Part shown: positions 5,659-44,900 of the stretch, one piece after another | How the letters are laid out: the number at the start of each line of letters is the position of its first letter | How positions within the stretch are numbered: position 1 is the stretch's first letter | From: Bacteroidota bacterium | Lineage (GTDB): Bacteria; Bacteroidota; Bacteroidia; Flavobacteriales; Weeksellaceae | Length of the DNA stretch: 64,000 nt | Reading direction: 5' to 3' | Assembly: GCA_018266955.1 (NCBI GenBank) | Contig: JAFDZI010000031.1 | Span: 27,071 to 91,070, forward strand | The notes under the pieces: generated by a model | Databases searched by the model: none | Seen by the model: the letters and a program-made list of their open reading frames with translations, nothing else | What the model was told of the DNA's origin: nothing | Position numbers and translations under genes: made by a program

Positions 5659-7155
5659 TTACTTAACCCTCAAAAACTTAAGTTTCTTCATCTGTGTAAG
5701 CACCAGCTTAATAGTTTCGTCCAAATGGGAAGTTTTAAAATACTTGGGTGTGTAGATGAGTTTTTCGTTAAAAATAGACTTTATAATCTGTCTTTTTCCC
5801 TCTAGGGTAGCATTCTCATAAAACCCGTTTACATTCTTAAAAATTGAAATTCCCTCTTCGAGATGCTTTTGAAAATCTTTGCCCCTGCTTTTGATCTGCT
5901 CCAGCTCCATTTTTATTTCGCCCATCTGAACATCCGTTTTACGCTTCATCTCGTTATAGGTTTTCACATCAATCACATCATCGAAAAACTTCTGCTCCAC
6001 CGATTCCAGTCGGGATTGCAGTTTCCCCAATTCTCTTTTTAAAGACTGGATATGCACCTCTTTCGTTTCGCCCTCGTCCTGAAAAACTTCTGCCAGGATT
6101 TTTTTGTAAAGCATCTTTATTTGATCCTCTTGTATAGAAAATTCGTCCAACAACTGACCAAACAGCGAATGAACTTCGCCTATCTTATACCGTACCTTGC
6201 AAGGCGGATTACAATGGTAATACCAATAGGAGTTAACTCCGTTATGTCCTTTGGATGCACTTCCCGTTAAAACTCTTCCACAATCAGGACAAAGCAGAAA
6301 TCCACGAAGAGGAAGTTGTTCCACAATATTTTCGGTTGCCCTTCTGGGCTTCGGGCATTTACCAGCCATCACTTTTTGCACTTGCTCGAAAGTATTCGTA
6401 TCGACAATGGCATCGTGCAAACCTTCCACAATCATTTCGGGTTCTTTTTTCCATTCGGAAATATAGATTTTACCAGTGTACATTACATTTTTCAAAAGGT
6501 GTGTAAAACCGTTTTTGCTCATCTTTAATCCTTTATTGTAATATTTTTTTCGAATATCTTCCGTAGAATAAATCCCTTTTGCATATTCAGCAAATACTTT
6601 TTTTACCAAAACGGATAATTCAGGATGGGGAGTGAGTGTAGACTTTCCTTCTTCGTTTCTGATTTTTATATATCCGAAAGGAGCAGCACCGCCCATATAG
6701 CAGCCTTCTTTTAACCCTTTTCTTAATCCTTGTCTTGTTCTGAGACTTATGGAATCGTTCTCAATTTCTGGTAAAGTAAGGCTAATCGCCAATAACATTT
6801 TAGCACTGCTTTGTGTTAAATCTAATGGCTGTTCTGTTGAGTTTATTCCAATTTCCCAGTCCTTAAACTGACGAATAACGCTATAGGCTTGCTCTGTATT
6901 ACGGCTAAATCGATCCCATCGGGTAAACAAAACCGAATCAACAATTTTTTTATTGGCTTTTATATAGGTCATTAGTTTTTTCCATTCGGGACGGTTTTCA
7001 AAATTTTTAGCAGAATAGTCTTCCTCAAAGTGCCTTAATATATTGTATCCTTTCTGATTACAATAATTTTCTAAAGATTCCTTTTGATGCTTTAAAGAAA
7101 AACCTTTATCTGCCTGCTCGTCCGTACTCACACGGGTGTAAATAATCACGTTCAT
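5659..7155 (-). CDS. Large serine recombinase (site-specific integrase)
   Basis: About 498 residues from the ATG that reads MNVIIYTRVSTDEQ. An upstream in-frame ATG exists but this start overlaps the preceding small gene's stop as ATGA. The resolvase domain has YTRVSTDEQADKGFSL with the catalytic serine, FTRWDRFSRN, and the helical block leading to RTRQGLRKGL. A recombinase domain, a zinc ribbon (CPDCGRVLTG, then CNPPC) and a coiled coil near 380-440 follow. This is the standard layout of large serine integrases of integrative elements and phages. It probably moves the surrounding element and does not need a tRNA target. No matching att core could be identified by eye. Confidence 0.9.
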   Translation of the reverse strand: MNVIIYTRVSTDEQADKGFSLKHQKESLENYCNQKGYNILRHFEEDYSAKNFENRPEWKKLMTYIKANKKIVDSVLFTRWDRFSRNTEQAYSVIRQFKDWEIGINSTEQPLDLTQSSAKMLLAISLTLPEIENDSISLRTRQGLRKGLKEGCYMGGAAPFGYIKIRNEEGKSTLTPHPELSVLVKKVFAEYAKGIYSTEDIRKKYYNKGLKMSKNGFTHLLKNVMYTGKIYISEWKKEPEMIVEGLHDAIVDTNTFEQVQKVMAGKCPKPRRATENIVEQLPLRGFLLCPDCGRVLTGSASKGHNGVNSYWYYHCNPPCKVRYKIGEVHSLFGQLLDEFSIQEDQIKMLYKKILAEVFQDEGETKEVHIQSLKRELGKLQSRLESVEQKFFDDVIDVKTYNEMKRKTDVQMGEIKMELEQIKSRGKDFQKHLEEGISIFKNVNGFYENATLEGKRQIIKSIFNEKLIYTPKYFKTSHLDETIKLVLTQMKKLKFLRVK

Positions 7156-7301
7156 TTCTTCTTCATTTTTTGTTGATAACATTCATATTCAATCAACGCC
7201 CAAACCCGTAATTTTTGGGCAATCCTTGCCCATTCCATTTCGGAGTATTTCGGCGTATTGTCTTGATTTTTAGGGGCTTTTGGGTTCGATATTGATTTCA
7301 T
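7152..7301 (-). CDS. Small protein translationally coupled to the recombinase
   Basis: A 49-residue frame beginning MKSISNPKAP and ending QQKMKKK. Its TGA stop overlaps the recombinase ATG (ATGA), a classic coupling arrangement, which argues it is real despite its size. Composition is polar N-terminally with an aromatic helix (EMEWARIAQKLRVWALIEYE). It could be a recombination directionality factor or a leader peptide, but no family is recognised. It also shows that UGA acts as a stop in this part of the element. Confidence 0.6.
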   Translation of the reverse strand: MKSISNPKAPKNQDNTPKYSEMEWARIAQKLRVWALIEYECYQQKMKKK

Positions 7302-25801: not shown

Positions 25802-26653
25802 TTAGTACATATTTACTTTCTCCCCGTCAAACAGCCACCAATCCTCAAAAACATTTTGTTTAATCTCCTCTAAAGATTTAAATAAGAAGTGAAATTTCGC
25901 TTCTGTAAAACGTTCGTCTTCAAGAAGTCTCTTCATCGCCATTTGCTTATACACCTCGAGTTCGAAGATACAGAGAATACGGCTTCCATAATCTAGCCCA
26001 AACATTCTGCTCGGTTGCCCTACTGACAATGCCCTCAAATGATGAAATAAAGACTTATGAACACGACTTGTATCATCTCCGTTATACATTTCAATGGCAT
26101 ACAACTCTTTTCTATTCGGTGTTTGAAGCATACAAAGTGCATCAGCAATCAAATAATCGTTTTCAGAGATTTGAATGAACGATTCCGCTTTGTAACCCTT
26201 CTTCTTTCCCGTAGAAACCTTATCAAAATAGGTCAAGAATAGTAGCATTTCACAATCATCAATTTTAGAAATTCCTTTGTGTAAAGCGATTTGCACATTA
26301 ATCGTGTTCATTCTATGGAAGTAATCCTTTTGATAAAATTGACCTTCATTTTTCGGAAACCTGACAACCTCTTCTCTCAAATAATCTTTAACAATTTCAG
26401 CACCATGAGCTTTTAAAAAATGTACATTTTCGAGTTTCCCTATTGCAGGATGAACTCCGAATGCAATAGAACCCACTAACGGATCTTTCCGAAGTCTGAG
26501 TTCTGCAATTTGCTTGTTGAGATTCGCTCTGTCAGACATAATTCCGAGACCGAGCAACTGCCCTGCTGTTAAATATTTGTAACGAGCCAAAGCTAAAAGG
26601 ATTTTTTCCTGTGAGGGAGAAAGTGTTTGAAAGAATAATCTTTTAGTAACCAT
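25802..26653 (-). CDS. Replication-relaxation family protein
   Basis: 283 residues, no signal or TM. An N-terminal winged-helix-like region (SPSQEKILLALARYKYLTAGQLLGL) and a restriction-endonuclease-like core with Glu/Asp residues (CEMLLFLTYFD, YLIADALCML, YAIEMYNGDD) match the replication-relaxation proteins of conjugative and plasmid elements. It probably nicks or binds DNA at the transfer or replication origin. It lies 65 nt downstream of the VirD4/HerA-like ATPase gene in the same direction, so the two form the element's mobilisation pair. No classical relaxase with HUH or tyrosine motif is seen in the window. Confidence 0.8.
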   Translation of the reverse strand: MVTKRLFFQTLSPSQEKILLALARYKYLTAGQLLGLGIMSDRANLNKQIAELRLRKDPLVGSIAFGVHPAIGKLENVHFLKAHGAEIVKDYLREEVVRFPKNEGQFYQKDYFHRMNTINVQIALHKGISKIDDCEMLLFLTYFDKVSTGKKKGYKAESFIQISENDYLIADALCMLQTPNRKELYAIEMYNGDDTSRVHKSLFHHLRALSVGQPSRMFGLDYGSRILCIFELEVYKQMAMKRLLEDERFTEAKFHFLFKSLEEIKQNVFEDWWLFDGEKVNMY

Positions 26654-26718: not shown

Positions 26719-28629
26719 TTAGAGATGAAACTTAGGCTTAATACTTCCGCTGGACTCTGTGGAATTTTGAGGTACGGATTCAGAATTTTCTTTTGCTGGA
26801 AGAATTGTAGCTTCGGAATCCGATGCCGGATTTACAGTTTCATTAGTTGTATCTGCTGAAGTCGATTTGGCTTTTGAAGGAATCAAAGTTGGCGCATGAA
26901 CTGGATTTGATGTAGGTTCATGCGGCGGATTCTGACTTTTATTTTGAAACTGCGTTTGTGTTTGAATTGGATTTACATTGATGATGTCTCTGTAAATTTC
27001 CGATTCAGACAACAAATAGGCTTTTAGTTTTTTCAGTTCTTCTTTGTTACAAAAGTATCTTTTCTGCTGTCTAATTAGAAAATCGGGACTTTTAATTTTT
27101 ATGGCCGGAAAATGATCGTACTTTAAGTAGAACTCATAAGGTAACAAACTCTGCATTGCTGAATAAGAAACTCCAAAATCCCCTGCCAATTCTTTAAGTG
27201 CAGGCAAGCCGTTGATTCCTGCTAATTTAACAGCTGAGTTATTCAAAACTGAATTCTTTAATGATAATGGGATTTGACCGACACTTTGTGTTCCAACAAT
27301 CAAACGCAATTTGTACTTCCTGGCCTCAGAAAATATGGTTTGAATACTTCCGCTTTCTGTCGTGAAATTGTGAAATTCATCGATAAACAGATAACAGGGC
27401 TTTCTTGAATGTTCGGATTCGAACGCCCTCTGAAATACAATGCTCAGAATGGTTGCGGAAACAAATCTCCCGAGTGCTCTGCTCGTATCTTCTCCCAATT
27501 TTCCTTTGGATAAATTAAACAGGATTATCCTGCCTTCCTGCATTCCTTTCTTTAGGTCGATATTGCTTTTTCCGTTCATCATGTGGTAGAACATCATATT
27601 GTTTTGGAGGTGTTGCAATCTTGTATAGATTGCCAGTTTGGTAGGAGCATATTTTTTACTAAGGAATGCTGTTTCAAAAAACTGGCGGTAGACCTGAAAT
27701 GAAGATTTTTTGCCCAATTCCACCCATTTTGCATTTTGGGTGTCATCCATAAATATTTGCAAGTCGGATAGCCCACATCCTCCTCTTTCAAGCAAAACTG
27801 CTAAACACGGTTTCAGCAGCGCTTCCATTTGAAGCGACATTCCTGCTTCGGGAATTAATTCCGAAAACGCTTTGGCGAATTGCTGGGACATCACATCAAT
27901 TAAAAACGGCTCGGAGACTCTCCGCCAAAATGGGTTGATGCAGGGAATTTTTTCATTTTCCAATTGCGGATCGATGTACCAAACACGGTCGGGCTTTTGA
28001 AGATTGATACGGAATCCTAATAAGCTCTCGGATAGGTCTCCATGAGGATCCAAAAGAATTATTGAGTGTTGCTGTTTCAATTGGGATTGATGCTGAATTT
28101 GGTAAGCAATCGCTTTCATAAATTCCGTCTTTCCGGAACCTGTCCTGCCGCTAATAAAGCAATGCCTGTCTAAAGCGGAAACGGGAAATGGGACAGGCTT
28201 TGGAGCAAAAAATAATGCGTGTAGCGAAGGTAGACAAAGTGAAAGAAGTTTTTGATAGTCGTGTTCATCATCGCTGGTAAAAGAAGATAAAATTTTCGGG
28301 TGTTTCAATAAAAGATTCCAATATTCCAAAGCAGGCGAAACGCATACTGCCCTCTCCAATTTTTCTTTGCTTGTCGCTTTCTTGGTTCTCATTTCTTCAA
28401 ATTTCTTGAAGGTCAGAAATCGTTTTTGAAGTTCTTTGCGGTAATGAATTGAATTTCTATCCAGTCGGGAGAGGTTTTTATCGATTGCTTTTATTCGTTC
28501 TGAAATTAAAGCATCCCGACCCGAAGGATGTCCGGCAAGTAAATAACTTCCTGCAAGTAGATAAGGTTCTTGGTTTCTGATCTTCCATAGAAAGGAAGTT
28601 TTATTCCAGAATTGAATTGTTGAATTCAT
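26719..28629 (-). CDS. TraG/VirD4/HerA-like conjugative DNA-transfer ATPase
   Basis: 636 residues. Walker A GRTGSGKTEF at 161-170, IILLDPHGDLSE and Walker B CYLFIDEFHNF, then an arginine/sensor region near GTQSVGQIP. It lacks the N-terminal membrane helices of TraG and is closer to the cytosolic HerA/VirB4-like transfer ATPases of Bacteroidota elements. The last 110 residues are P/T/S/N-rich and probably disordered. It drives DNA movement during conjugation or mobilisation. It has a short gap to the replication-relaxation gene below, and a 1-kb non-coding block sits above its start. Confidence 0.85.
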   Translation of the reverse strand: MNSTIQFWNKTSFLWKIRNQEPYLLAGSYLLAGHPSGRDALISERIKAIDKNLSRLDRNSIHYRKELQKRFLTFKKFEEMRTKKATSKEKLERAVCVSPALEYWNLLLKHPKILSSFTSDDEHDYQKLLSLCLPSLHALFFAPKPVPFPVSALDRHCFISGRTGSGKTEFMKAIAYQIQHQSQLKQQHSIILLDPHGDLSESLLGFRINLQKPDRVWYIDPQLENEKIPCINPFWRRVSEPFLIDVMSQQFAKAFSELIPEAGMSLQMEALLKPCLAVLLERGGCGLSDLQIFMDDTQNAKWVELGKKSSFQVYRQFFETAFLSKKYAPTKLAIYTRLQHLQNNMMFYHMMNGKSNIDLKKGMQEGRIILFNLSKGKLGEDTSRALGRFVSATILSIVFQRAFESEHSRKPCYLFIDEFHNFTTESGSIQTIFSEARKYKLRLIVGTQSVGQIPLSLKNSVLNNSAVKLAGINGLPALKELAGDFGVSYSAMQSLLPYEFYLKYDHFPAIKIKSPDFLIRQQKRYFCNKEELKKLKAYLLSESEIYRDIINVNPIQTQTQFQNKSQNPPHEPTSNPVHAPTLIPSKAKSTSADTTNETVNPASDSEATILPAKENSESVPQNSTESSGSIKPKFHL

Positions 28630-29672
28630 GATAAAATAATTTTTGTGTTTGAGTTTCAGTTTGAGTTTGAATTTTCAGATTAAATTTTTAAAGAATTCAG
28701 GTTTGAATTTTAAAAAATTGAGTGGTATTGCTTAACAAATTGCCTGACTCGGCAGAAGAAATAAAACAGAATAGAGATGCATTTGTTTTTTTGAATTAAA
28801 ACTTGGCTTAAAAAAGCATGGTTTTGTAACGGAAATAAAGAGAAGAATTCTTGGCTTTTGATTGAATTTCCGAGAATGGGTTGTTAAAATATATCGGAAC
28901 TGTTTCTCACAAAAGTGATGGTGCTACTTATGGATTTTTTATGTAAAGTCAAGTTCTTTCGATTAAGGTTTGTCGAGTGTCTATAAAATGTCAATATACT
29001 TTAGAATACCTTATTGAGAACCTTTTAGACTACCTTTTTAGCAACCTCCAAAGGAAAGCGGAAATCGCCCTGTTTACCGAGCTTTTAACTGCAATTTCTA
29101 TGCCATAATATCTTCCTTTTTCCACTTTCCATTATTACCATCTTCCTATCTATAAAAAGTAAAAATGTAAAGTCAAACTGCATCAACTTCTCTTGCAAGT
29201 CAACCAAAAATCCATACAAGCACCATCGCCGGCAAACATACCAAATCAATTAAAACAAAAATGTAAAGACACAAAAAATCTATCAATGTATCAATCTACC
29301 AATTTAACAAAAACAAAAATTCAAAAAATTAAAATCCTAAAACAAAACGAAAAACAATCAACCAAAAATCACAAACAATGTAAAACAAACTATCAAAAAA
29401 AATCAATTCAAAGTCTATCAAAACACAAAAAATTAACAAAACCTATTCAAAATCAAAACTCAAAAACAGTCAACTGAAAAAATTCTTAACACAAAAAATC
29501 TCTAAACAAAATGAAACAATCCAAAACGACAAACAACCATCAACAAATTAAAACCCCTTATAACAAAGAATGAAAAAATCAACAACGTAACAATCAACGA
29601 GTGACAAAAAAAATTAACAACAATCAAGAAAAACAAAATCTAAAAATTTAAAAATCCTAAAACAAAAACAAA
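28630..29672. other. 1-kb non-coding block with a G-poor, A/C-rich half
   Basis: No supportable gene on either strand. From about 29190 to 29670 the plus strand is strongly A/C-rich with very little G and T (many AAAAC/CAAAA units), so an RNA from it would be unstructured. It ends just before the plus-strand small-gene run. It may be a long leader or an initiation/transfer region; 29193-29477 is an open frame but its protein is only low-complexity K/Q/N/T and I do not call it. Confidence 0.5.
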
Positions 29673-29906
29673 ATGGAAAACAAAATCAACAAAACCGTCA
29701 ATCTAGACTTGACGACTATCGACAGTAACATCTTCGCCATTTTTGGAGCGTTCTCCAGACAGGCAAGACGTGAGAAGTGGACGCAACAAGAAATTGATGC
29801 CGTCCTCGAAGAAGCCAAAAGCGGAGATTATGATCATGCGATTGCTACCATCTGCGAGTATTGTGACCCTGAAGACGATTCTAACTCTGAAAACGAAGAA
29901 GACTAA
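29673..29906 (+). CDS. Small acidic element protein, unknown
   Basis: 77 residues (MENKINKTVNLDLTTID...), ending in an acidic DPEDDSNSENEED tail. No signal or TM. It overlaps the next gene's ATG by one base, so it heads the plus-strand small-gene operon. Function unknown; likely a small regulatory or conjugation-accessory protein. Confidence 0.6.
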   Translation: MENKINKTVNLDLTTIDSNIFAIFGAFSRQARREKWTQQEIDAVLEEAKSGDYDHAIATICEYCDPEDDSNSENEED

Positions 29907-30511
29907 TGGGAACAAGAAATTTAACCGTGGTGGTACAAAACCAAGAAGTGAAAGTTGCTCAATATGGGCAGTATGACGGATTCCCCGATTCCCTTGGAGT
30001 AAAATTATTAAAATTCTTTAGCAATCCTGAGAACACCGAAAAATTAAAAGAAATCCTTCCGAAAGTACGTCTTTGGAATGAAAAAGACCAAAAGCTACAG
30101 GACGAATTTCTGGAATCAATCGGTTGTACCAACGGAATACTCAACGACAAGCAAAAGGAACAATTCAAAATGAAGTATCCTTTTCGCTATCGTGAACGCT
30201 ACGGAAAATTAACCGAAGGGCAAATCTTGGAAATATTGCTGGAGTTTCATCATCTTGATGAAATCGCAACCATCGATGCTTACGATTTTGCTTCCGACAG
30301 TCTGTTCTGTGAATGGGCGTATGTGATTGACTACGATAAAAATGCTTTTGAAGTGTACAAAGGTCTCAACACCTCGGGAATTTCAGAAGAAGACCGCTTC
30401 TTTCCGCTTTATGACGGAGAAAACGATTATTATCCTGTCAAAATCATTGCCTCATTTCCTTTGGATCAACTTCCCGATGAAAACGAATTTCTTTTTCAAT
30501 GCTCAACGTAG
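29906..30511 (+). CDS. Conserved element protein of unknown function
   Basis: 201 residues, beginning MGTRNLTVVVQNQEVKVAQYGQYDGFP, a recurrent start of hypothetical proteins in plasmids and phages. The rest is mixed alpha/beta with no enzyme motif seen. Coupled to the 77-residue gene. Ends in TAG. Function unknown. Confidence 0.65.
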   Translation: MGTRNLTVVVQNQEVKVAQYGQYDGFPDSLGVKLLKFFSNPENTEKLKEILPKVRLWNEKDQKLQDEFLESIGCTNGILNDKQKEQFKMKYPFRYRERYGKLTEGQILEILLEFHHLDEIATIDAYDFASDSLFCEWAYVIDYDKNAFEVYKGLNTSGISEEDRFFPLYDGENDYYPVKIIASFPLDQLPDENEFLFQCST

Positions 30512-30590
30512 TAAGCAATATGCGGTAGGCTTTAAGCTCTCAATTTTAATGTCTGCTATCTAGTGTCTAACCTCTAAAATCTAAAAAACA

Positions 30591-31175
30591 ATGAACAAAA
30601 ACAAAAACCGCCTACTGGTAATGTGCTTTATGAAAATGCTTCAGCAAAGAATCGAAAGAGACAAAGTGGAAACCCTAAGTCCTATATTCGGTAACATCTT
30701 AAGTAAAGAAGAGCTTCAAAACATTTTGAAGTGGCTGTACTTGGATAAAGTGCCTGAACACTACGATTTGAAAACGATGGACAGTCAGGATTTGCTTGAA
30801 GCCATCGGAGATGACATTCATATCCTTTCGTATTCCATAGAAAAATGGAAAAAGGAACTGGAAGAGAAAATCACGCCACAGAAAGTCTATGAGGTACTTT
30901 GCCAGCTCCAACTCGAAACCCATTATCTGATGACCAAAATTTTGGCAGATTGGGACGAGTACGACCACAGCAACTTCAAGGCACTCTGCCGAAAGGCGGG
31001 AACTCCTCAACCCTTATTTGCTGTATTTGAATCTTCTGTACTAGAAGAGGACAAATATATTTCTGTTCCTCTTTCTAAATATTATGCTACCGAGTGGGAA
31101 GCAACATCTAAAAAATCACTTCTCATTTCGGAAGAACAGTTTGAGGAACATCAGCTCCAGATCCTAAGCCTGTAA
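30591..31175 (+). CDS. Element protein, paralogue of the 32.4-kb gene
   Basis: 194 residues. The part VPEHYDLKTMDSQDLLEAIGDD then IHILSYSIEKW aligns with VPSEFNLVEMENNELLQLIGDD then FKIISYVMSRW in the gene at 32407, so the two are paralogues arising by duplication within the cluster. No known motif. Soluble. Function unknown. Confidence 0.6.
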   Translation: MNKNKNRLLVMCFMKMLQQRIERDKVETLSPIFGNILSKEELQNILKWLYLDKVPEHYDLKTMDSQDLLEAIGDDIHILSYSIEKWKKELEEKITPQKVYEVLCQLQLETHYLMTKILADWDEYDHSNFKALCRKAGTPQPLFAVFESSVLEEDKYISVPLSKYYATEWEATSKKSLLISEEQFEEHQLQILSL

Positions 31176-31205
31176 TCTTTTATCCAATTATTTTATAAAA
31201 CAAAA

Positions 31206-31640
31206 ATGAAACAATCAATCTTAGAATTTTATTCTAATCTGGACAAAGCCAGAGACAGAGCTTTATGGCTGGAGTTTGAGTACAGAAATATTCCCAAGCA
31301 TTTTATGGTATTTGATGGGCCTGAAAACAATTTCGCCGTTGCCGATTTAGAAACGGCAGAAGAAATGGAAATGACGCATCATTACTACTCTCTTCCTGAA
31401 AATTATCAACATCTTTCTTACGGAGATTTGAAAGGAATTTCGGGCGACCCAGAGATGTTAGGACACTGGGAAAATATCCTTGGAAAGTTCTCGGTAATGG
31501 AAGGCGAATTACTTCGCTTTATCCTGAAATATCAGGTTCCTCTAGATAAAATTATTCGTTACGAACTTGGGTGTAGAGGATTTGACCATAACAATCAATG
31601 GATTGGATTTAATGAATCTGAAAAACTATGGCAACAATAA
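31206..31640 (+). CDS. Small soluble protein, unknown
   Basis: 144 residues (MKQSILEFYSNLDKARDRAL...). Acidic and tryptophan-containing, with no signal or TM. Such small acidic proteins on conjugative elements are sometimes anti-restriction DNA mimics, but nothing specific supports that here. It overlaps the start region of the next small gene. Confidence 0.55.
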   Translation: MKQSILEFYSNLDKARDRALWLEFEYRNIPKHFMVFDGPENNFAVADLETAEEMEMTHHYYSLPENYQHLSYGDLKGISGDPEMLGHWENILGKFSVMEGELLRFILKYQVPLDKIIRYELGCRGFDHNNQWIGFNESEKLWQQ

Positions 31641-31645
31641 ATAGT

Positions 31646-31873
31646 ATGGATACAGAAAACAATAAGACAACTCTGGAGGAAGTCTATGTGATTGCTCTTG
31701 CCGAAAATGACGGGGAATTTGATTGGGTTTATATTCTTCCAAAACCCTATTATCTTACCGAAACAGAAGCCTTGGAAATCAGAAATTCATTAATCGAAAA
31801 TGAAGAATTTATTACCGAAAGTAACTGTATCGTAAAAAAACTATACAGAGTAAAACCCATACAAGAAGAATAA
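31646..31873 (+). CDS. Small protein, paralogue of the 32.1-kb gene
   Basis: 75 residues from MDTENNKTT (an upstream ATG at 31628 is less likely). The core WVYILPKPYYLTETEALEIR...LIENEEFITESN resembles the neighbouring 32101 protein, indicating an in-cluster duplication. Function unknown. Confidence 0.55.
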   Translation: MDTENNKTTLEEVYVIALAENDGEFDWVYILPKPYYLTETEALEIRNSLIENEEFITESNCIVKKLYRVKPIQEE

Positions 31874-31891
31874 GAAACAATCAAAAACAAA

Positions 31892-32104
31892 ATGGAAAAC
31901 AAAAAATGGGTAAAGCAAGTGATGATTATTGATGATAAACTGCATCAAAGCTATCTGCAAACTTTTGTGGAAGAACCATTGAACTTTGAGGAGTTCGTCA
32001 ATTTTGAATTGGGAAACCTCTTTGATGAAGACAGGAAGATTGAACAGATTATCCCGAATGAAAATGCCACTCAATTTGTCATCATTTATTCTATAAAGCT
32101 ATGA
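31892..32104 (+). CDS. Small acidic protein, unknown
   Basis: 70 residues (MENKKWVKQVMIIDDKLHQ...). The frame ends TGA-TGA-TAA, overlapping the next ATG (ATGATG). If UGA were read as Gly here, two glycines would be added before TAA, so this ending is compatible with either code. Function unknown. Confidence 0.5.
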   Translation: MENKKWVKQVMIIDDKLHQSYLQTFVEEPLNFEEFVNFELGNLFDEDRKIEQIIPNENATQFVIIYSIKL

Positions 32105-32322
32105 TGATAAAAGGAAACTATGTGTTTATTTATGTTCACTTTGTCATTCTCCAAAAGGCTCCTCAATTGGGAATGGATTACATTGTATGTCATCCCAAAC
32201 CTTTTTATCAGACCTATAGAATGGCAAGAAACATCAGAAGAACACTCATTGAAAACGGAAGTCTTTCCGAAGAAAACTCAAAAATTGGTGGATTTCAAAT
32301 CCTTGCGATTAACCTTAATTGA
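32101..32322 (+). CDS. Small protein, paralogue of the 31.6-kb gene
   Basis: 73 residues. HPKPFYQTYRMARNIRRTLIENGSLSEENS matches the pattern of the 31646 protein. It ends in TGA; with UGA=Gly it would run eight codons further to TAG. Function unknown. Confidence 0.5.
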   Translation: MMIKGNYVFIYVHFVILQKAPQLGMDYIVCHPKPFYQTYRMARNIRRTLIENGSLSEENSKIGGFQILAINLN

Positions 32323-32406
32323 ATTGCGTTAAGCCTTAAGCAATAGGCTTTAAGCTCTATTGTCTAATATCTAACCTCTTAAGTCTAACCTCTAATATCT
32401 AAATTT
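32323..32406 (+). repeat. TCTAA-type intergenic repeat
   Basis: The 84-bp gap is made of short units of the form TCTAAYMTCTAA, five in a row, after GGCTTTAAGCTCT. The same elements recur at about 30525-30590, before the paralogous gene, so gene and leader were duplicated together. Confidence 0.5.
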
Positions 32407-33009
32407 ATGAACGAAAACAGAACGGCACTCTTGAAAATATTCTCAGCAGTGCTAAAGGACAGAGTAAAATCTGAACCTCAGTATCAATCCATCAGTACGG
32501 AAATGGTCAAACATTTTTCCCGAAAAGAATTGATTGAAATCATTACCCACAACTTCGAGGGCGAAGTTCCATCGGAATTTAACCTCGTGGAAATGGAAAA
32601 TAATGAACTTTTGCAATTGATTGGAGATGATTTCAAAATCATTTCTTATGTGATGAGCCGTTGGAGCAAGGAAGTTTCACTACTTCCAACCCTCCAAGAA
32701 TGGATGCATTCTAAAGTTCATTCATCTCCTGAAAAGGAAATAGAAGAAAACTTGGAATCAAATTCATCAGAAACTTCATCAGAAAATTTGGAGAATCCTC
32801 CAACAAATGAAATGATTTCTGAACATCCAGATTCTACTTCTGAAAATTCTGATAAAACCAATTCGGAATCTCCTAAACCTTCGGATGTATCATCTGAAGT
32901 TAAAAAATTTGAAGAGAAACTGAATTTCAATCCTGATTCTAAACCTGCTTCAGAAAAACCGCATTTCGGTAGGAAGCAGGAGGACAAGAAAACTGAAAAA
33001 AGCAAGTAA
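32407..33009 (+). CDS. Element protein with Ser/Glu-rich disordered tail
   Basis: 200 residues. The first 100 match the 30591 paralogue; the C-terminal half is a low-complexity S/E/P/K-rich tail (NSSETSSENLENPP). Soluble. Likely two-domain after fusion to a disordered tail. Function unknown. Confidence 0.6.
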   Translation: MNENRTALLKIFSAVLKDRVKSEPQYQSISTEMVKHFSRKELIEIITHNFEGEVPSEFNLVEMENNELLQLIGDDFKIISYVMSRWSKEVSLLPTLQEWMHSKVHSSPEKEIEENLESNSSETSSENLENPPTNEMISEHPDSTSENSDKTNSESPKPSDVSSEVKKFEEKLNFNPDSKPASEKPHFGRKQEDKKTEKSK

Positions 33010-33219
33010 CGCCTTTGGTATTCAAAGGCTGGGAATGGTTTCCGTTCCAACAATGAACTCATGGAAATAGCCCAAGTTTTTTACTCGGGCTATTTTATTT
33101 TCTTAAGCAACACTCCCCTGCAATAGATACATTTACTTTATTTACAAAAAGTGAAAATGAGCCATTCCTCTGAAAATAAAATAATTACCAAAAACAAAAC
33201 TCCCCTGCTCAAAGCAAAA

Positions 33220-34011
33220 ATGAAAACCCCGATTACGTATTACGGTGGGAAACAGAATTTAGTAAAAGAACTTCTTTGATTAATTCCTCCTCATAAAATC
33301 TATGTAGAACCTTATTTTTGAGGCGGAGCACTGTTTCGGGCTAAAGAGCCTTCTTCTTCTGAAATTATCAATGACACCAACATGAATGTGGTTAATTTCT
33401 ACGAAGTTTTGAAGAAAAACTACAAAGCACTGCACGAAAAAATCGAAGCCACTCTTCACAGTAGGGAAACTTACAAAAAAGCGCTTTTCATTTACGAAAC
33501 TCCCCGGCTTTTTGCGGACAATCCTGTAATAAGAGCACGAGCTTTCTATGTATCCTGCAATCAATGATTTTGCAGTCGTGTTGGGAGTTGGTGATATGAT
33601 AAGGGAAAAAGATGTGCTTCGGTTTTTCAGAATAAAATAGAAAACTTTAAAGAAGAAATGAGCATTCGTCTTTCTTACACGCAAATCGAACAAAACTCGG
33701 CTCATCTTGTCATTCAGTCGAGGGATCATGAACATGCCTTCTTTTACTGTGATCCTCCTTATATCGGGACGAATCAATGACATTATGGAGGTTATTACGA
33801 AGACGATTTCATCAGAGACCTCACGGTATTATCACAAATCAAGTGAAAGTTTTTATTGAGCAATTTTCCATCTAAAATACTCGATAGGTTTGTAAAGGAG
33901 CATCAATGGTATGTAAAAACCTTTGACCAACCTTTGTCAGCCTCTCACAACAGCAAGAAGAACTTAAACAAAAGAAAAACGGAAGTGTTGGTGGCGAATT
34001 ATCCGATATAA
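33220..34011 (+). CDS. Dam-like D12-class N6-adenine methyltransferase with six in-frame UGAs
   Basis: A 264-codon single frame ending in TAA. TPITYYGGKQNLV is the D12 methylase start, EPYF-[UGA]-GGALF motif I, CDPPYIG (178-181) the catalytic DPPY, and HNSKKNLNKRKTEVLVANYP the usual end. TGA lies at codons 20, 34, 116, 125, 187 and 209 (33277, 33319, 33565, 33592, 33778, 33844). At 34 (EPFF-G-GGA), 125 (GSW-G-YD), 187 (Q/C-G-HY) and 209 (I-G-KFLL) the family has glycine; the others tolerate it. Trp is still TGG (SW just before codon 125), so UGA is not Trp. Other Gly codons are GGA, GGT, GGC and GGG. Under the standard code the longest usable piece is about 60 residues and no methylase is made. 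Confidence 0.88.
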
Positions 34012-34022
34012 TACCCCAACAG

Positions 34023-34083
34023 AGCCCCCAAACCCCCAAAGGGGGCTTATTGAATATTTTCCCCTTTTGGGGGACAGGGGGCT
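34023..34083. repeat. C/G-rich imperfect palindrome
   Basis: AGCCCCC and CCCCCAAAGGGGGCT units on one side and CCCCTTTTGGGGG and GGGGGCT on the other make a roughly 60-bp palindromic element between the two methylase regions. Its high GC is out of line with the AT-rich surroundings. It looks like a dispersed REP/MITE-type repeat of Bacteroidota. Confidence 0.6.
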
Positions 34084-34107
34084 TTTACATTAAAAAACAA
34101 AAATGAA

Positions 34108-34254
34108 ATGAACACCTCAAAACCAAAATACAACAATCAAAGAAAAAATGTCGTGATGCGTAAGATCAAACCAAGAATGAAACAGAGAGTTTTCAAAAAC
34201 GAAGAAATCCCCATCCATAAAATCAGAAAAGATTACGAAAAATTTAAAGTATGA
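34108..34254 (+). CDS. Small basic protein ahead of the cytosine methylase
   Basis: 48 residues (MNTSKPKYNNQRKNVVMRKIK...), strongly basic. The frame meets TGA at 34252; with UGA=Gly it would run through two TGAs to TAA at 34288 (60 residues) and overlap the methylase start. The basic N-terminal region could bind nucleic acid. Coding status is moderate; function unknown. Confidence 0.45.
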   Translation: MNTSKPKYNNQRKNVVMRKIKPRMKQRVFKNEEIPIHKIRKDYEKFKV

Positions 34255-34268
34255 CCGAAGCTTAAAGC

Positions 34269-35275
34269 ATGATTACCCTCCTCCAAATAATCTAAAAGTA
34301 TTCTGAGCCTTTGTTGGTGGTGGCGGTTCTACAATGGGATACAAACTCGCAGGATTTCAACATTTGGGTGGTGTAGAAATAGATGGCAGAATGGCAAAAA
34401 TTTACCAAACCAACCATTCCCCTGAACATTTTTATCATGAAGACATCAGAGATTTTAACCAAAGAACTGATTTACCAAAAGAACTCTACGAATTAGATAT
34501 TTTGGATGGCTCTCCTCCTTGCAGTGCCTTCTCGATGTCCTGAAAACGTGAGGAATACCGGGGAAGAGAAAAAGTATTTAAAGAATGACAGAAAAAACAA
34601 ATTTTGGATGAACTTGTGTTTATATTCTGTGATATGGTAGAAAAGCTTATGCCCAAAGTTGTTGTAATGGAAAATGTTCCGGGACTCGTTGCCGGAAGAG
34701 CAAAAAAATATGCCATTGAAGTCTATGAGAGACTTAATTTGCTATGATATCAAGTCCAAATCTTCAGACTCAATTCAGCTACAATGGGTGTTCCCCAAGC
34801 TCGTGAACGTATTTTCTTTATTGCAAGAAAAAAGAGCTTGGAGCTCCCCCAATTAATTTTGGACTTCAATGAATCCCCTGTATATTTTGGAACAATTGCC
34901 GACAGAAATTCTACCACCCATCCTCCGCTCCGACCTTCCATTGAAAAAAGACGACCGTTTGTAGAATACGGAGATCAGAATTTAAAGTTTGCCGATGCAA
35001 AATACAGAAATTTAAATACCTTCAATGCGTTCTTCAGTACCTATATTTTGTACGATGATATTGTTGCTCCTACATTGACTTCAAGTGGAGCATGAGTATA
35101 TTACCCCGAAAAACGCAATCTTAATGATACCGAATATATTCGTATGAGTAGTTTTCCAAACGATTTTGATTTTTGCAACATATCAACCCGTTATGTTTGC
35201 GGAATGAGCGTTCCTCCATTGATGACCGCTAGAATTGCAAATGAAATAAGAAAACAATGGTTTTCAATAATTTAG
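34269..35275 (+). CDS. Dcm-like C5-cytosine methyltransferase with five in-frame UGAs and a start-proximal frameshift
   Basis: About 335 codons to a TAG. FVGGGGSTMGYKLAG (SAM site), LDGSPPCSAFSMS (catalytic PC), VVMENVPGL (ENV) and VPQARERIFFIARK are the cytosine-methylase motifs, and CGMSVPPLMTARIA the end. TGA stands at 34304, 34541, 34586, 34745 and 35093, all in the same frame. At FSMS-[UGA]-KRE, FKE-[UGA]-QKK, NLL-[UGA]-YQVQ and SSGA-[UGA]-V the family has glycine; at the first site it has Ser/Gly. The ATG at 34269 begins MIT but is one base out of phase with the motif frame, as if one nucleotide had been lost from ACCCTNCCTCC. This is the only other lesion in the TGA-containing set and may mean decay or a sequencing error. 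Confidence 0.85.
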
Positions 35276-35760
35276 CAATCTGAAATGTACCAATGTTTAA
35301 TTGAAATACATATTCAAAAAATTGTTAAACTGTTACATTATTCGATTGTTACATTAATTCATACTCCTCTCCTCTACAACATTAACAAGGCTTTTCACAG
35401 CCTTTATAAAGATTACATTCACCGAAAAATAAGATAAATAATTGTTTTTCTGAAACAATCAACAAGGTGGTTGTCAAAGGTTGATACACTCCTCTGCCAA
35501 ACCTTAACAAGGCATTGTCAAAGTCTGCCACAACTTTATCAATCCCATGACAAACCTTCTACAATGAATGTCAAGGCATTGTTAAAGTAAATCACTTGAA
35601 AAAGCCTTTTCGATGCTTATAAATCCGTAAGGAATTAAAAAGGGATGTTATAACCTTTAACAATCCCCTGACAAATGTTTGAAGAAGTTTTGTAAAACCT
35701 ATGACAAAGATTTAATCATCTATTGTCAAACGTAGAGCAAAGTAACTAAAAACAAGCATT
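35276..35760. repeat. Non-coding repeat region with TTGTCAAAG-type motifs
   Basis: Between the Dcm-like and HTH genes a 485-bp block has no gene but at least eight copies of TTGTCAAAG/CTTTGACAA-like units in both orientations, and longer ones such as AACAAGGCATTGTCAAAG and CAAGGCATTGTTAAAG. They are spaced irregularly from about 35380 to 35740. This layout suits a partition or transfer site or a control region for the downstream HTH protein and Rep. Confidence 0.6.
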
Positions 35761-35835
35761 CAATTGATTGTATTCTGTATGATAACCAAAAGTTATCGTG
35801 AAAAAAGCGAGTATTTATCCTATAAAAATAATTCT

Positions 35836-36357
35836 ATGGAAATTTCAAAATCAGAGGCAGAAAGACTGCTGGGTGTAAGTTCCACCACCTTGTATAATCG
35901 GGCAAACAAAATGAATATCAAATTCATCAATAAAGTAGACTCCAAAGGAAAGAGCAGTTACCTTGCCCAATCCGATTTGGAGAAAATGGCAGAAGCAATG
36001 GGTAAGACATTGAAAACCGAATCCGCCCCTGAAAAAGAAAATCCGAAAACGGAAAGCAGAGGAGCAGAGGAGTGAGAAGCCCAAGAATTTGTACAGGAAA
36101 AATTTATGCTTCAACTCAAAATCAAGGAACAGGAAGAGGAGATCAAGTCCAACAACCAAATCATTGAATTTTATAAAGAAAATAATTCGCAATTGCTGAT
36201 GAACCAACAGGAAGCTAAAAATCAAATCACTACTATGTACTGAGAAATGCTTGGAATTTCGAAAAAAGCCACGACCTACTATATTATCTCTATTGCCGTA
36301 TCGGTTGTGTTACTCCTGTTTGTTGTTCTTGTTGCCACAGGAAACCTGAAATTTTAA
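35836..36357 (+). CDS. HTH, coiled-coil and membrane-anchored protein with two in-frame UGAs
   Basis: A 174-codon frame to TAA, with TGA at codons 80 (36073) and 136 (36241). ISKSEAERLLGVSSTTLYNRAN is an excisionase/MerR-like helix-turn-helix. After the first TGA (RGAEE-[UGA]-EAQEF) comes an acidic coiled coil and, after the second (TTMY-[UGA]-EMLGIS), a hydrophobic TM helix (IISIAVSVVLLLFVVLVATG). Both halves together make one sensible protein, and Gly is tolerable at both positions. The N-terminal region is rich in K/E. A longer upstream start exists (35764). It could tether the repeat region or the Rep origin to the membrane, or act in copy control. Confidence 0.8.
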
Positions 36358-36372
36358 AGCAGAGGAGTCTGC

Positions 36373-36510
36373 AACCCTGAAAATGTAGCCGTTGATAACA
36401 TTACAAATGATAGATTTGGATGGTAAAATGATAAAAACCAAGCAAAAAAGCCAATTTTAAAATATAGAACAGTTCTAATAAAATCCACCCTAAAAATGTA
36501 GCCGTTCATA
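36373..36510. repeat. Inverted iteron-like copies
   Basis: ACCCTGAAAATGTAGCCGTT near 36373 and ACCCTAAAAATGTAGCCGTT near 36487 are near-identical direct repeats. Their complement (TTTTCAGGGT) matches the iteron core in the array downstream, so they are oppositely oriented iteron-like sites. Confidence 0.5.
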
Positions 36511-36724
36511 GCTAAAAGCCATAAACAGAAAGCTATGAGCTGATAAAAAAAACCTTTTCCCATAATTGCTTTTAGACTTTCCCCTATAAAAACAAACCTA
36601 AAAATTATACAACAAAAGTTTTATTTATCCCTGTTATAAGATGTTATATATTTTAAGTTCTTATATTGTTTATAGCCCGAAAGTTTGTTTATGACAAAGG
36701 ATTTACGAAGCATTTGGTATCAAA

Positions 36725-36805
36725 TTCAGGGTTAAGCATACCAAAAACAGGGTAAAGTATAACCGACTTGGGGCGAAGTATACCATTTTCAGGGTGGAAA
36801 GGCTA
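36725..36805. repeat. Iteron array at the replication origin
   Basis: Four copies of a CAGGGTAAAGTATACC-type iteron start at 36727, 36748, 36769 and 36790, 21 bp apart, two helical turns. Additional partial copies are near 36834 and 36862. Direct repeats in the same face of the helix upstream of a Rep gene (36985) are the hallmark of iteron-controlled plasmid origins. An AT-rich stretch lies on either side. Confidence 0.75.
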
Positions 36806-36984
36806 CTAAAACAAGGGATATTGGCTACTTATTTGGGGCATATCATCAAATATAAAAAATTCAGGGTGCAAGACAAACAAGCGAAAGAAGTAGGAAACAC
36901 GATCAGATAATGAAAATTAAAAATATTTTTGAAATATACCATTGAAGTCATACCGTAGCTTGTGAATGTAGCTTTTAAAGATAA

Positions 36985-38274
36985 ATGAAAGAACAAAGAC
37001 TAAAAAACAATAGTCGTCAACTTTATACCGTATATCCACACATGATCCACCAACTTACCGTCAAAAAGTCCCACGAACTGGTCACTGCAAGATATTCTTT
37101 TAATTTGATGGAAATGAGACTGTTTACCTTAATCATCAGTATGATCCAGGACAAGGATGAGGATTTTAAAACTTACAATATTCCGATTAAAAACATTATT
37201 CAAACTTTCGGGATTAAAAACAAGAATATTTATGCTGAGATTAATTCGTTGACCACTTCGATGCTTAAGAAAATCATTACAATTCCCGTAAAAGAGGAAG
37301 GTAAAAACAAAGAAATCAAAACGGCTCTAGTTTCATCATTCAAATATTCCGTTGACGGAAGAGGAGTCTTGGAAGCAAGTTTTCACCCTGTACTCAAACC
37401 GTATTTGTTGCAATTAAAATCTAAATTTCTATTGTACGATCTTAAAAATATTCTTAAAATTTCTTCCGGACACAGTATCCGTTTTTATGAACTTTTAAAG
37501 AGCTACGAATGAATTGGGAAAAGAGTTTTTGAAGTTCAAGAGCTGAAAGAAATTCTATGTGTGGAAGACAAATATGCAAAATATGCCAACTTCAAAAAGA
37601 GGGTTTTGCTTAAGGCACAGGAAGATATCGAAAAACATACGGACATCCGTTTTACCTTTGAAGAAATTTCCGAATTTTCCAGAAGTGTGGAAAAGTTGGT
37701 TTTCACGATACATAAAAACAAAAAAACGGTCATTGAAAGTAATAATACCGATTATTCTACAAAAAATAAGAGTAAAGATGCTCACGTAAATAAATGGCAC
37801 TATGAGATCAAGTCTTTCGGAGTTTCGCAGACTGTTTTGGAAAATCAAATTTTGGGAGAATTCGAAGAAGAGTTTATCAAACAGACTTTAAAATTCTGCA
37901 AAGATTATTTCAAAACCAACTACGTAAAACAGAAAAGTGGATTTTTCCTCAAAGCCTTGCAAAACGAATATTATAAACAAGAAATTGAAAGTCTCTCGAA
38001 AAAAAACCAAAAGAAAAAAAATATTGGACAGCAAGAATCCAAACAAACCGAGCTGGAAAAACAAAAAAATCTTGCGAAAAAGCAGAGAGCAGAGGAGTTA
38101 AGAGCGCAGTTTTTAACGCCCGAACTGATTGAAGAAATTATTCAGGAGCAGAAAGAATCCAATATTTTCATGTACAATATAATCAATAAATCGTATCAGC
38201 AAGGGATTATCAATCCTTTTCTGGAAGGGTTGATTGATAAAAAATTGTTGGAGGAGTTTGGGGGTAATCAATAA
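36985..38274 (+). CDS. Rep_3/RepB-type replication initiator with one in-frame UGA
   Basis: A 430-codon frame ending in TAA, interrupted by TGA at codon 176 (37510). HELVTARYSFNLMEMRLFTLIIS, then ISSGHSIRFYELLKSYE-[UGA]-IGKRVFEV, then FKKRVLLKAQEDIE, is the winged-helix initiator profile; the TGA site is a turn between the two winged helices where glycine is common. The C-terminal tail is K/E/Q-rich. It lies about 200 bp after the iterons it should bind. Under the standard code only the first winged helix (175 residues) is produced and replication would fail; under UGA=Gly it is full length. Confidence 0.85.
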
Positions 38275-38512: not shown

Positions 38513-39883
38513 ATGATGATAAAATTATTTTTCAGAACAATTATTTTTATTTTTATTCTTATTTTTAATTACAATAATGCACAGTTAGTTGGCTCAAATA
38601 TGCAAGTTTGGGAAAAAGCACCAGTGAGTTATGTAAATGACTCTACAAAATGTAGGAATAATAAACTACTAAATTTCAATTGTGATATCAAAGATAAAAT
38701 ACCTGTAACTATTATTAAATATCATAAAACAAAATCGCATTCTTTGGTAGCGGTTCACACATCTGGCGATAATGAATGGATATGGAAGAATCAGGAAAAT
38801 AAAGTAAATCTTGCTAATAACAAATATCAAAAAGTAAAAGTTAACCAAACAGTAGGTATGAATAAACGCCCTAGTCTTTATTCTTTTGTAAGCCCCCCAG
38901 TTCAAAATGACAGTTTAACGGTGGACAGTTTAAAAATTAAATTTGAGGACAAAAATCTATACGAAATTATTTTTACCCCAAAGAAAATTCGCCCGTCAGA
39001 ATTAAGAAAAATACAATCATATCTATCAATTAAGTATGGCATATCATTAGAAGAAGGAAAATATTACAATAGTTCTAATGATATTATTTGGGATCCAGGA
39101 AAACACAAGAACTTTAAATATCGACCAACAGGAATAGGTAGAGATGATGGGAATGAGCTTTATCAAAAACAATCTAGCAATCAACAGGATAAATTTTTAA
39201 TTATTGGTAAAAATCAAATTAAGCGGTTGAATTTTTTAAATACGGCAACATTAAACAATAAAGCATTTGTGATATGGTCGGATGATAATAAGGACATGGC
39301 TTTTGAAAACGATGGAAATTACGATGTACTAAAAAGAAATTGGGAAATCAATTTTATAGGACAAATTGAGAAAAATAACTATAAAATACGCATTGATAAA
39401 ACAGTTATGAATCCCCAATTAATTCCTGTATCTTATTGGATTTTTCTTAAAAAATCCGATGGAAGTATACAAAAAATCCAAGGTGTTGAAAACAATAACA
39501 AAATAGTTTTCAACGACATTATTTTTGATACGGATGAAAATAATTCTACAACGTTCACTTTTGCTAAAAAGTCTCTTGAAGGTATTGAAAAAATTAATTT
39601 AGATTCCAAAAATATTGGAGCCAACGCATCAGTAGCCAATGCACAGGAGATTATACTTTATCCAAATCCAGTGAAAATGAACGAATCATTTACTATTGAA
39701 TTCCCAGCTTCCAAGGGGATGGAAATATCTATTTATGATGGCGGAGGAAGGCTTCTGAAAAGAGAATTTATAGATTCTAATGCAACTCAATATAAAAATC
39801 ATCTTGTTGTACAAGGAACATATATCATCATTTTGAACCAAAACGGTCAAAAAATTAAAACCTTCAAGCTCATCGTCCAATAA
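38513..39883 (+). CDS. T9SS type A sorting-domain secreted protein
   Basis: 456 residues with a signal peptide (IKLFFRTIIFIFILIFNYNNAQ) and a C-terminal Por sorting domain: EIILYPNPVKMNESFTIEF, ISIYDGGGRLLKREF and the ending QGTYIIILNQNGQKIKTFKLIV. Exported via the type IX system to the cell surface or medium. The middle has no known catalytic motif. It lies just upstream of the Rhs-like locus, on the same strand, and may be a partner or surface carrier. The 238-bp gap before it holds no gene; AT-rich. Confidence 0.8.
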   Translation: MMIKLFFRTIIFIFILIFNYNNAQLVGSNMQVWEKAPVSYVNDSTKCRNNKLLNFNCDIKDKIPVTIIKYHKTKSHSLVAVHTSGDNEWIWKNQENKVNLANNKYQKVKVNQTVGMNKRPSLYSFVSPPVQNDSLTVDSLKIKFEDKNLYEIIFTPKKIRPSELRKIQSYLSIKYGISLEEGKYYNSSNDIIWDPGKHKNFKYRPTGIGRDDGNELYQKQSSNQQDKFLIIGKNQIKRLNFLNTATLNNKAFVIWSDDNKDMAFENDGNYDVLKRNWEINFIGQIEKNNYKIRIDKTVMNPQLIPVSYWIFLKKSDGSIQKIQGVENNNKIVFNDIIFDTDENNSTTFTFAKKSLEGIEKINLDSKNIGANASVANAQEIILYPNPVKMNESFTIEFPASKGMEISIYDGGGRLLKREFIDSNATQYKNHLVVQGTYIIILNQNGQKIKTFKLIVQ

Positions 39884-39901
39884 AAAACACATCATTATCA
39901 T

Positions 39902-40642
39902 ATGAAATCCGATTATTCAAAATTGTCTGCCCAAAGTAGAAAGACTACTCTTATTATACTTTTGTTTGTTTTTTATTGTAGTTTTGCTGCGATTTCAAAA
40001 GAACAAATCTATAAAGTCCATCAATTTAAAAAAGAATTGTTGGGGCAGGATCAAGAGAAAAATTTCCCTTCCGAAAAAAATACATATGATGTATTGTTTT
40101 CCGATGGGTTACACTCAATCCACGGATCCGCGAGAGAAACTTCACTTCTAACTCCTCATGCTTTAAATAATAATGAAGGTTTTACACTTAATAATTCTTC
40201 ACCTTTAAAAGATTTAATTACCGAAAGTAGTAACACCAATAAAAGATTAGGTGCAAACGAGGATGTGTTCGATGCTTTAGAAAAACAAGGACAGATAGGT
40301 GTATTTTCTGAAGACGAAGAAGATAAAATTTCTGATAATTTTTTCACAATTAATATTCCAAAACAATCAGAACCAATAGCTGCGGCATATCTCACCTATG
40401 ATTTGTTTGGATTATCGGGTCATGAGTCAGTACCAAGATCCATCAACCAAAATCCAGCTGTGGGAGGTAATTTGATAGAAGCAAAATACGCTTGGAGCAA
40501 CCAAAAGGAAAGTATTAATTTGAGTCTTCTCAAAGAAGGGAAAAACACAATTTTGTTCACTCCACCTTCTGCAGGAATTAAATACAAGGTGAAAAATGTA
40601 AAAGTCGTTTTTGAACGTATTCCTTCTTTAATTACCTCTTAA
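39902..40642 (+). pseudogene. N-terminal fragment of a SpvB/Rhs-type toxin
   Basis: 246 residues, with an N-terminal membrane/signal segment (TLIILLFVFYCSFAA) and an exported beta-rich part ending VKNVKVVFERIPSLITS. Long Rhs/TcdB proteins of Flavobacteria have a region of this kind at their N-terminus followed by a SpvB part. Here the frame stops at 40640 and the next frame (+1) continues with FTIDYEFSKPSYNDPNPR, the typical text found further on. So an internal deletion plus frameshift has split the gene. Confidence 0.6.
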
Positions 40643-40700
40643 TCAATTTACAATAGATTATGAATTTAGTAAACCTAGCTATAATGATCCAAACCCTAGA

Positions 40701-44897: not shown

Positions 44898-44900
44898 ATT

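What the first reader, a model, noticed from the sequence alone, without database searches (positions are those of the whole stretch)
33220..38274. In-frame TGA codons read as glycine in four adjacent mobile-element genes
Seen: the Dam-like, Dcm-like, HTH/TM and Rep genes hold 14 in-frame TGA codons (6, 5, 2 and 1) and no in-frame TAA or TAG, and each remains a single frame through conserved motifs to TAA or TAG (the Dcm-like gene apart from its start). Known: at least eight sites are glycine in the families, for example EPYF-x-GGALF, GSW-x-YD, the residue before HY, IK-x-KFLL, FSMS-x-KRE, KE-x-QKK and L-x-YQVQ. Trp remains TGG. GGA codons still occur beside the TGAs, and the TGA contexts share no motif. 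Inference: these genes were written or maintained under UGA=Gly, as in code 25 of Absconditabacteria/Gracilibacteria, but with flavobacterial-type genes. Random decay would also give TAA/TAG, especially GAA to TAA, and would not choose glycine sites. I saw no tRNA with a UCA anticodon in the window.
Basis: partly seen in the sequence, partly recalled or inferred. Interest (0 to 1): 0.95.

Follow-up and report, generated by a model that had tools for sequence, protein, structure and literature searches.

The report
Mobile DNA written in two codes
A mobile DNA element in chromosomes of the Chryseobacterium family keeps one set of its genes in the ordinary genetic code and another set in the altered code known from Absconditabacteria, tiny bacteria that live on other bacteria, so it likely shuttles between these two very different kinds of cell.

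Summary
Dam, Dcm, HTH/TM and Rep run through 14 in-frame TGAs (17 with a Dcm N-terminal extension). Dam is interrupted only by TGA in 13 elements of Flavobacteriales, this one included, at differing sites; dN/dS past the TGAs is 0.03-0.18. A codon-by-codon reading of 21 recoded Dam and Dcm copies finds 3 of 62 codons changed: TGA=Gly (105/115), CGA=Trp (35/35), CGG=Trp (30/30). That is the code published for Absconditabacteria (PMC8629427). Seven small gene families beside them are standard: 0 TGA against 414 GGN codons, and CGA/CGG mostly at Arg-type sites. In 296 family genomes a gene of this standard block has 9 strong loci, all 9 beside a recoded Dam. The window's genome has an intact RF2 gene; none of its 36 tRNAs, nor of 55 in a relative with a 2-contig genome, has anticodon UCA. 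CGA/CGG=Trp would corrupt a flavobacterial proteome, so the recoded half must be read in another cell. Most likely this is a natural shuttle element of Flavobacteriales and Absconditabacteria, each reading its own half. No Absconditabacteria genome could be examined here.

The parts
33157..34011 (+). Dam-like N6-adenine methyltransferase (core from 33220), recoded: 6 TGA (33277, 33319, 33565, 33592, 33778, 33844), CGG at 33337 and 33505, CGA at 33538
   Evidence: Gly/Trp sites
34103..35275 (+). Dcm-like C5-cytosine methyltransferase, recoded: core TGA at 34304, 34541, 34586, 34745, 35093; N-terminal TGA at 34109, 34154, 34178; CGA at 34256, 34931, 34952; CGG at 34559. Core from 34235, where the homologues' start ATG is ACG
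35836..36357 (+). HTH_17-like protein with a C-terminal transmembrane stretch (by eye), recoded: TGA at 36073 and 36241
   Evidence: its few CGA/CGG codons are not informative
36985..38274 (+). Rep3-family replication initiator, recoded: TGA at 37510; no CGA/CGG in this copy
29673..33009 (+). Block of seven small standard-coded genes (29673-29906, 29906-30511, 30591-31175, 31206-31640, 31628-31873, 31892-32104, 32407-33009), function unknown
   Evidence: 0 TGA / 414 GGN in 76 gene copies; CGA/CGG as Arg; dN/dS; no Pfam family over its cut-off
26719..28629 (-). TraD/VirD4-like coupling ATPase, standard code here, recoded in six sister elements
25802..26653 (-). Conserved transfer-region protein of unknown family, standard code here, TGA-bearing in the same six sister elements
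   Evidence: CGA/CGG evidence in this family is inconclusive
5659..7182 (-). Large serine recombinase, standard code; left end of the colinearity with the element of G587 (copy a)

Best explanation
The four genes are part of a mobile element written in two genetic codes, a block of seven small genes in the standard code and a module with UGA as glycine (and, in Dam and Dcm, CGA and CGG as tryptophan), and the element likely shuttles between Flavobacteriales and Absconditabacteria, each of which would read its own half. Shown by sequence: the meaning of the codons, the constant linkage of the two gene sets, purifying selection on both, and residence in flavobacterial chromosomes. Inferred: in a flavobacterial cell the element sits in the chromosome through a standard-coded recombinase and expresses only the standard block, while recoded genes stop at their first UGA. 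Inferred: in an Absconditabacteria cell, whose tRNAs read UGA as Gly and CGA/CGG as Trp, the module makes the replication initiator (or, in sister elements, a recoded serine recombinase), the DNA methyltransferases and in some elements the coupling ATPase, so that the element is kept, marked and passed on there. It would be a natural shuttle vector whose maintenance genes for each host are written in that host's code.
For: Code: 3 of 62 codons changed, TGA=Gly 105/115, CGA=Trp 35/35, CGG=Trp 30/30 in 13 Dams and 8 Dcms, the set given for Absconditabacteria in PMC8629427 (passages). Control within one family: the coupling ATPase has CGA/CGG opposite Trp 60, Phe 35, Leu 26, Tyr 11, Arg 1 of 147 in recoded copies, and opposite Arg 24, His 13, Lys 9, Trp 0 of 63 in standard copies. 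Standard block: 0 TGA/414 GGN; its 39 CGA/CGG codons face Arg 17, Lys 5, Glu 5, Trp 1. Linkage: 9 of 9 strong loci of the block's 194-aa gene, in 7 of 296 genomes, lie beside a recoded Dam (with 38, 41, 44, 61, 76). Selection: recoded genes 0.027-0.184 (18 of 22 values), standard block 0.063-0.203 (14 of 16). No decoder in the carrier: intact RF2, no UCA among 36 and 55 tRNAs, 0 of 395 genomes with a UCA tRNA of the pattern used, which does find 12 other anticodons in G525. Recoded Dams form one clade, 100/100.
Against: Attachment sites were not found. The Trp meaning of CGA/CGG is weak or untestable for HTH/TM, Rep of this window and the 283-aa transfer protein. Standard-coded recombinases near the elements may partly be chance, since each genome has 9-20 matches. 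The outgroup of the recoded recombinase shows Trp at Gly columns but little Arg at Trp columns (P0268 and P0269: 1 each).
Confidence: 0.72

Rival explanations
1. One-way traffic: elements of Absconditabacteria land in Flavobacteriales chromosomes again and again, where the recoded genes are mute passengers; nothing goes back.
For: The recoded genes cannot be read in the carrier. No copy in an Absconditabacteria genome was seen here.
Against: The same seven-gene standard block, with CGA/CGG as Arg and under purifying selection, sits beside the recoded genes in 9 of 9 loci; random landing would not bring the same standard-coded block each time.
Confidence: 0.2
2. The recoded genes are translated inside the flavobacterial cell by an unknown decoder, as a code lock opened by a helper phage or plasmid that brings suppressor tRNAs.
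For: Known for stop codons in phages (recalled; cited in PMC10746230, discussion read). Of 98 viral contigs with a UCA-tRNA pattern 80 were held, 23 UCA tRNAs were called, and 1 (L340, 5 of 7 acceptor pairs) meets the Gly identity rule of PMC8629427.
Against: Two sense codons change as well; reading CGA/CGG as Trp would put Trp at Arg sites of host proteins. No UCA tRNA in the elements or in the tRNA sets read.
Confidence: 0.05
3. Pseudogenes, contamination or misassembly.
For: Interrupted frames in a 59-contig draft genome.
Against: Same architecture in isolates and on a 3.46 Mb contig of a 2-contig genome; only TGA interrupts 13 Dams; strong purifying selection and a coherent change of three codons.
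Confidence: 0.01

Closest known systems
Absconditabacteria genetic code: table 25 plus CGA/CGG=Trp (PMC8629427, passages seen)
   Same: UGA=Gly, CGA=Trp, CGG=Trp; CGT, CGC, AGA, AGG stay Arg
   Different: There it is the code of a whole cell; here it is confined to part of the genes of an element in standard-code Flavobacteriales
Code-25 phage RSA-ATP1 of an Absconditicoccaceae epibiont (PMC13059738, passages seen)
   Same: Mobile DNA with in-frame UGA read as Gly
   Different: The phage is recoded for one host and carries tRNA-Gly(TCA); this element carries a standard-coded set too and no such tRNA was found
Phages predicted to infect both Absconditabacteria/Gracilibacteria and standard-code bacteria (PMC10746230, abstract and discussion seen)
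   Same: Proposed host range across the code border
   Different: They avoid the difference by not using in-frame TGA; this element carries separate genes in each code
Integrative conjugative or mobilizable elements of Bacteroidota (recalled)
   Same: Recombinase, coupling ATPase, chromosomal residence, cargo
   Different: Key maintenance genes cannot be read in the cell that carries them
Agrobacterium T-DNA (recalled, as an analogy)
   Same: One DNA with genes meant for two kinds of cell
   Different: There the split lies in expression signals, not in the meaning of codons; no kinship is claimed

Membership tests
Absconditabacteria genetic code | UGA = Gly | tested here: met
   105 of 115 at columns >=80% conserved; 184 of 313 non-TGA cells facing a TGA are GGN across six gene families
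Absconditabacteria genetic code | CGA and CGG = Trp, other Arg codons unchanged | tested here: met
   CGA 35/35, CGG 30/30 at Trp; CGT 48/49, CGC 17/17, AGA 53/61, AGG 35/37 at Arg
Absconditabacteria genetic code | tRNA-Gly(UCA) in the cell that reads the genes | tested here: not met
   Tested only in the flavobacterial carriers: none. The proposed second host was not available
Integrative conjugative or mobilizable element | Site-specific recombinase | tested here: met
   Standard serine recombinase 5659-7182; recoded ones in G049 and G115
Integrative conjugative or mobilizable element | Coupling ATPase and relaxase | tested here: inconclusive
   Coupling ATPase met (TrwB_AAD_bind); no relaxase family among the proteins scanned
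Integrative conjugative or mobilizable element | Integrated between attachment sites | tested here: inconclusive
   On chromosomal contigs; att repeats not found
Stop-recoded phage with its own suppressor tRNA | Suppressor tRNA on the element | tested here: not met
Mycoplasma-type code (UGA=Trp) | UGA at Trp sites | tested here: not met
   No TGA at a conserved Trp column of Dam or Dcm

The most novel reading that the evidence does not exclude
A natural bilingual shuttle element: one DNA molecule whose standard-coded genes work in a Flavobacteriales cell and whose Absconditabacteria-coded replication, integration, methylation and (in some elements) transfer genes work in an epibiont of another phylum; in its boldest form it is T-DNA-like, the epibiont delivering genes written in its host's code into that host.
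Probability: 0.65. Interest if true: 0.97.

Novelty: categorically new. Interest (0 to 1): 0.95.

Why it matters
A different genetic code is usually thought of as a barrier to gene exchange. Here a mobile element seems to get round it by carrying two gene sets in two codes, and the code itself names the second host. It would be evidence, readable from sequence alone, that Absconditabacteria live with Flavobacteriales, and it would put DNA of these uncultured bacteria's mobile elements into culturable isolates (C. limigenitum SUR2, C. defluvii S00151). It also means that annotation pipelines have broken such modules into pseudogenes or table-4 proteins, so the class can now be searched for on purpose.

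Tried and rejected
Viral collection: Dam and Dcm queries gave relatives without in-frame TGA in the aligned core (13 of 16 loci read), a Rep query gave none, a TGA-specific Dam motif gave 11 hits that are chance by eye, a recombinase profile gave 2 relatives of 25-27% identity, not read further. Plasmids and phages: DNA searches found only distant methylase or rep matches; protein searches found no Dam at 60% identity or more, 20 of 222 records listed, and 4 weak recombinase records.

Decoder in the carrying cell: Rfam at E<=5 on window 5000-40000 (4 implausible hits), ARAGORN on the element regions, my own cloverleaf scan (scattered chance hits), an anticodon/T-arm pattern in G000 and in 11 genomes (7-32 hits per genome against 4-17 for the backward control; all 11 hits of G000 and 25 of the other loci were run through ARAGORN, no tRNA called; the other hits were not examined), and a D-arm/anticodon pattern (0 of 395). 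Host tRNA-Gly genes shown have ordinary 5-bp anticodon stems. Dropped for that reason and because three codons change: a protein of the standard block that switches decoding.

Conserved noncoding stretches (29100-29278; spacers of the standard block) showed nothing tRNA-like. Attachment sites not found. Literature: ten searches (listings with starts of abstracts) showed no report of UGA=Gly genes in Bacteroidota or of an element with two codes. Passages read: PMC13092985, PMC8629427, PMC13059738; abstract and discussion of PMC10746230. PMC9197471 was not held.
Full report
What is in the window. Under table 25 the Dam-like, Dcm-like, HTH/TM and Rep genes are single frames with 6, 5 (8 with the N-terminal extension), 2 and 1 in-frame TGA. 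With X at every TGA, Pfam still recognises MethyltransfD12, DNA_methylase, HTH_17 (below its cut-off) and Rep3_N/Rep3_C. The window lies on a 91 kb contig of a 2.45 Mb draft genome.

First clue. Among the 120 best-listed Dam and 120 best-listed Dcm homologues most carry Gly at the TGA columns, but 23 Dams and 16 Dcms carry two or more Trp at conserved Gly columns. The closest Dam, 95% identical, has Trp at all six sites. Gene callers that choose table 4 (UGA=Trp) would produce this (inference), so recoded relatives seem common in metagenomes.

DNA of relatives. In 395 genomes of the order, Dam found two more copies with only TGA inside (8 and 6 TGA; 64 and 60% identity), while matches at 55% identity or less had no stops. 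In 296 genomes of the family, Rep found five more loci at 52-91% identity with 1-4 TGA; one also scored a TAA, which lies before query residue 20, its frame being open from there. A 67-residue fragment of 78% identity in G267 has no stop, and Reps of 24-32% identity have no TGA. One Aquimarina copy has a single TGA, at a Gly site, and was left aside; two others carry TAA or TAG. Over six gene families and eight elements, cells that face a TGA and are not TGA themselves hold GGN in 184 of 313 cases, then Ser 21, Ala 14, Glu 14 (N-terminal extensions not removed). dN/dS after the first shared TGA is 0.027-0.184 in 18 of 22 values, four being saturated. The genes are read through somewhere and selected for.

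The code. For 13 recoded Dams and 8 recoded Dcms each codon was scored against the consensus of 93 and 104 standard-coded homologues at columns at least 80% conserved. Of 62 codons, 59 have their standard meaning; TGA is Gly (105/115), CGA Trp (35/35), CGG Trp (30/30). At 60% conservation CGA is Trp in 40 of 41 cases and CGG in 32 of 32. For the window's copy alone: TGA Gly 9 of 10 (once a Pro column), CGA Trp 2 of 2, CGG Trp 3 of 3. Codetta (PMC8629427, passages seen) infers UGA=Gly with CGA and CGG=Trp for Absconditabacteria, and CGG=Trp for some Gracilibacteria.

Two codes in one element. The block 29673-33009, found in the same elements, holds no TGA beside 414 GGN codons in 76 gene copies. 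Of its 39 CGA/CGG codons 17 face Arg in the other elements, 5 Lys, 5 Glu and 1 Trp; of 100 in Dam, Dcm, Rep and the recoded recombinase 66 face Trp, 27 lie in columns that are CGA/CGG throughout, none faces Arg. The coupling ATPase is an internal control: TGA-bearing in six elements and TGA-free in seven, with CGA/CGG opposite Trp and other hydrophobic residues in the first group (Arg 1 of 147) and opposite Arg, His and Lys in the second (Trp 0 of 63). The 283-aa transfer protein, TGA-bearing in the same six, gives no clear CGA/CGG signal, nor does HTH/TM. The standard block is under purifying selection too (0.063-0.203 in 14 of 16 values, two saturated). Its 194-aa gene has nine strong loci in 7 of 296 family genomes, all nine beside a recoded Dam (G599:C34 is L190 by position).

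Architecture. Two types occur: with recoded Rep and HTH/TM and a standard coupling ATPase (this window, G525, G599:C17, two in G587, G515:C11, L189), or with a recoded recombinase-like gene and a recoded coupling ATPase (G049, G115, L185, L186, L190, L191). A standard-coded recombinase lies within about 40 kb of the recoded rep or recombinase in 8 of the 9 family loci; for G599:C17 none was seen, its contig ending 22 kb past rep. As a genome holds 9-20 recombinase matches, some of these pairings may be chance. From the serine recombinase at 5659 to Rep the window is colinear with G587 copy a.

Who reads it. RF2 is intact. All 36 tRNA matches of the window's genome and all 55 of G525 were read; none has anticodon UCA. 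A UCA-tRNA pattern found 0 in 395 genomes, while with other anticodons it matches 12 kinds in G525, so it is only partly sensitive. A cell that uses CGA/CGG as Arg could hardly read them as Trp (inference). So the recoded genes must be selected in another cell, and their code names Absconditabacteria. The 13 recoded Dams form one clade (100/100) among Bacteroidota Dams, mostly of Flavobacteriales (76 rows, midpoint root), so this methyltransferase was probably taken from there and then rewritten. The recoded recombinase has its next relatives (29-38% identity), with Trp at 5-10 Gly columns, partly on contigs of up to 178 and 338 kb; these may be code-25 chromosomes (inference), though Arg at Trp columns is rare in them.

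Verdict. A mobile element of Flavobacteriales with two gene sets in two codes is shown by sequence. That it lives in both kinds of cell is inferred; I put it at about 0.7. In the papers searched I found code-25 phages of these epibionts (PMC13059738, passages) and phages thought to infect both cell types by avoiding the difference (PMC10746230, abstract and discussion), and no element of this kind in ten searches.

Noticed in passing
window 20514-24970: Cargo of the element: 5-hmdU DNA kinase domain (22321-23364), dCTP deaminase-like protein (21489-22271), IrrE-type peptidase with an HTH partner: perhaps a base-hypermodification or defence island.
   Followed up: partly
G000:C2:59909-59986 (L014:109-187): tRNA-like gene called as anticodon UUA (tRNA-Stop) by ARAGORN, 41.5 bits in Rfam, mismatches in the acceptor stem; probably a tRNA pseudogene.
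   Followed up: partly
G267:C10:108051-108251: Isolated C-terminal Rep fragment (67 residues, 78% identity) without the rest of the element: a likely relic of a lost element.
   Followed up: no
G515:C24:2795-3268 and G599:C47:7410-7883: Further serine recombinase matches with 6 and 5 in-frame TGA, each near standard-coded recombinases: probably more elements of this kind.
   Followed up: no
G115 (L079:4267-5445), G599, G049: A family of about 390 aa with 3-5 in-frame TGA, in three elements away from the main module; function unknown.
   Followed up: partly
viral contig L340 (IMGVR_UViG_3300028588_000819): Viral UCA tRNA that meets the Gly identity rule (G1:C72, C2:G71, G3:C70, U73) but with only 5 of 7 acceptor pairs.
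   Followed up: no
window 38513-46099: RHS/YD-repeat-type proteins directly right of the element, outside the homology shared with other elements.
   Followed up: no
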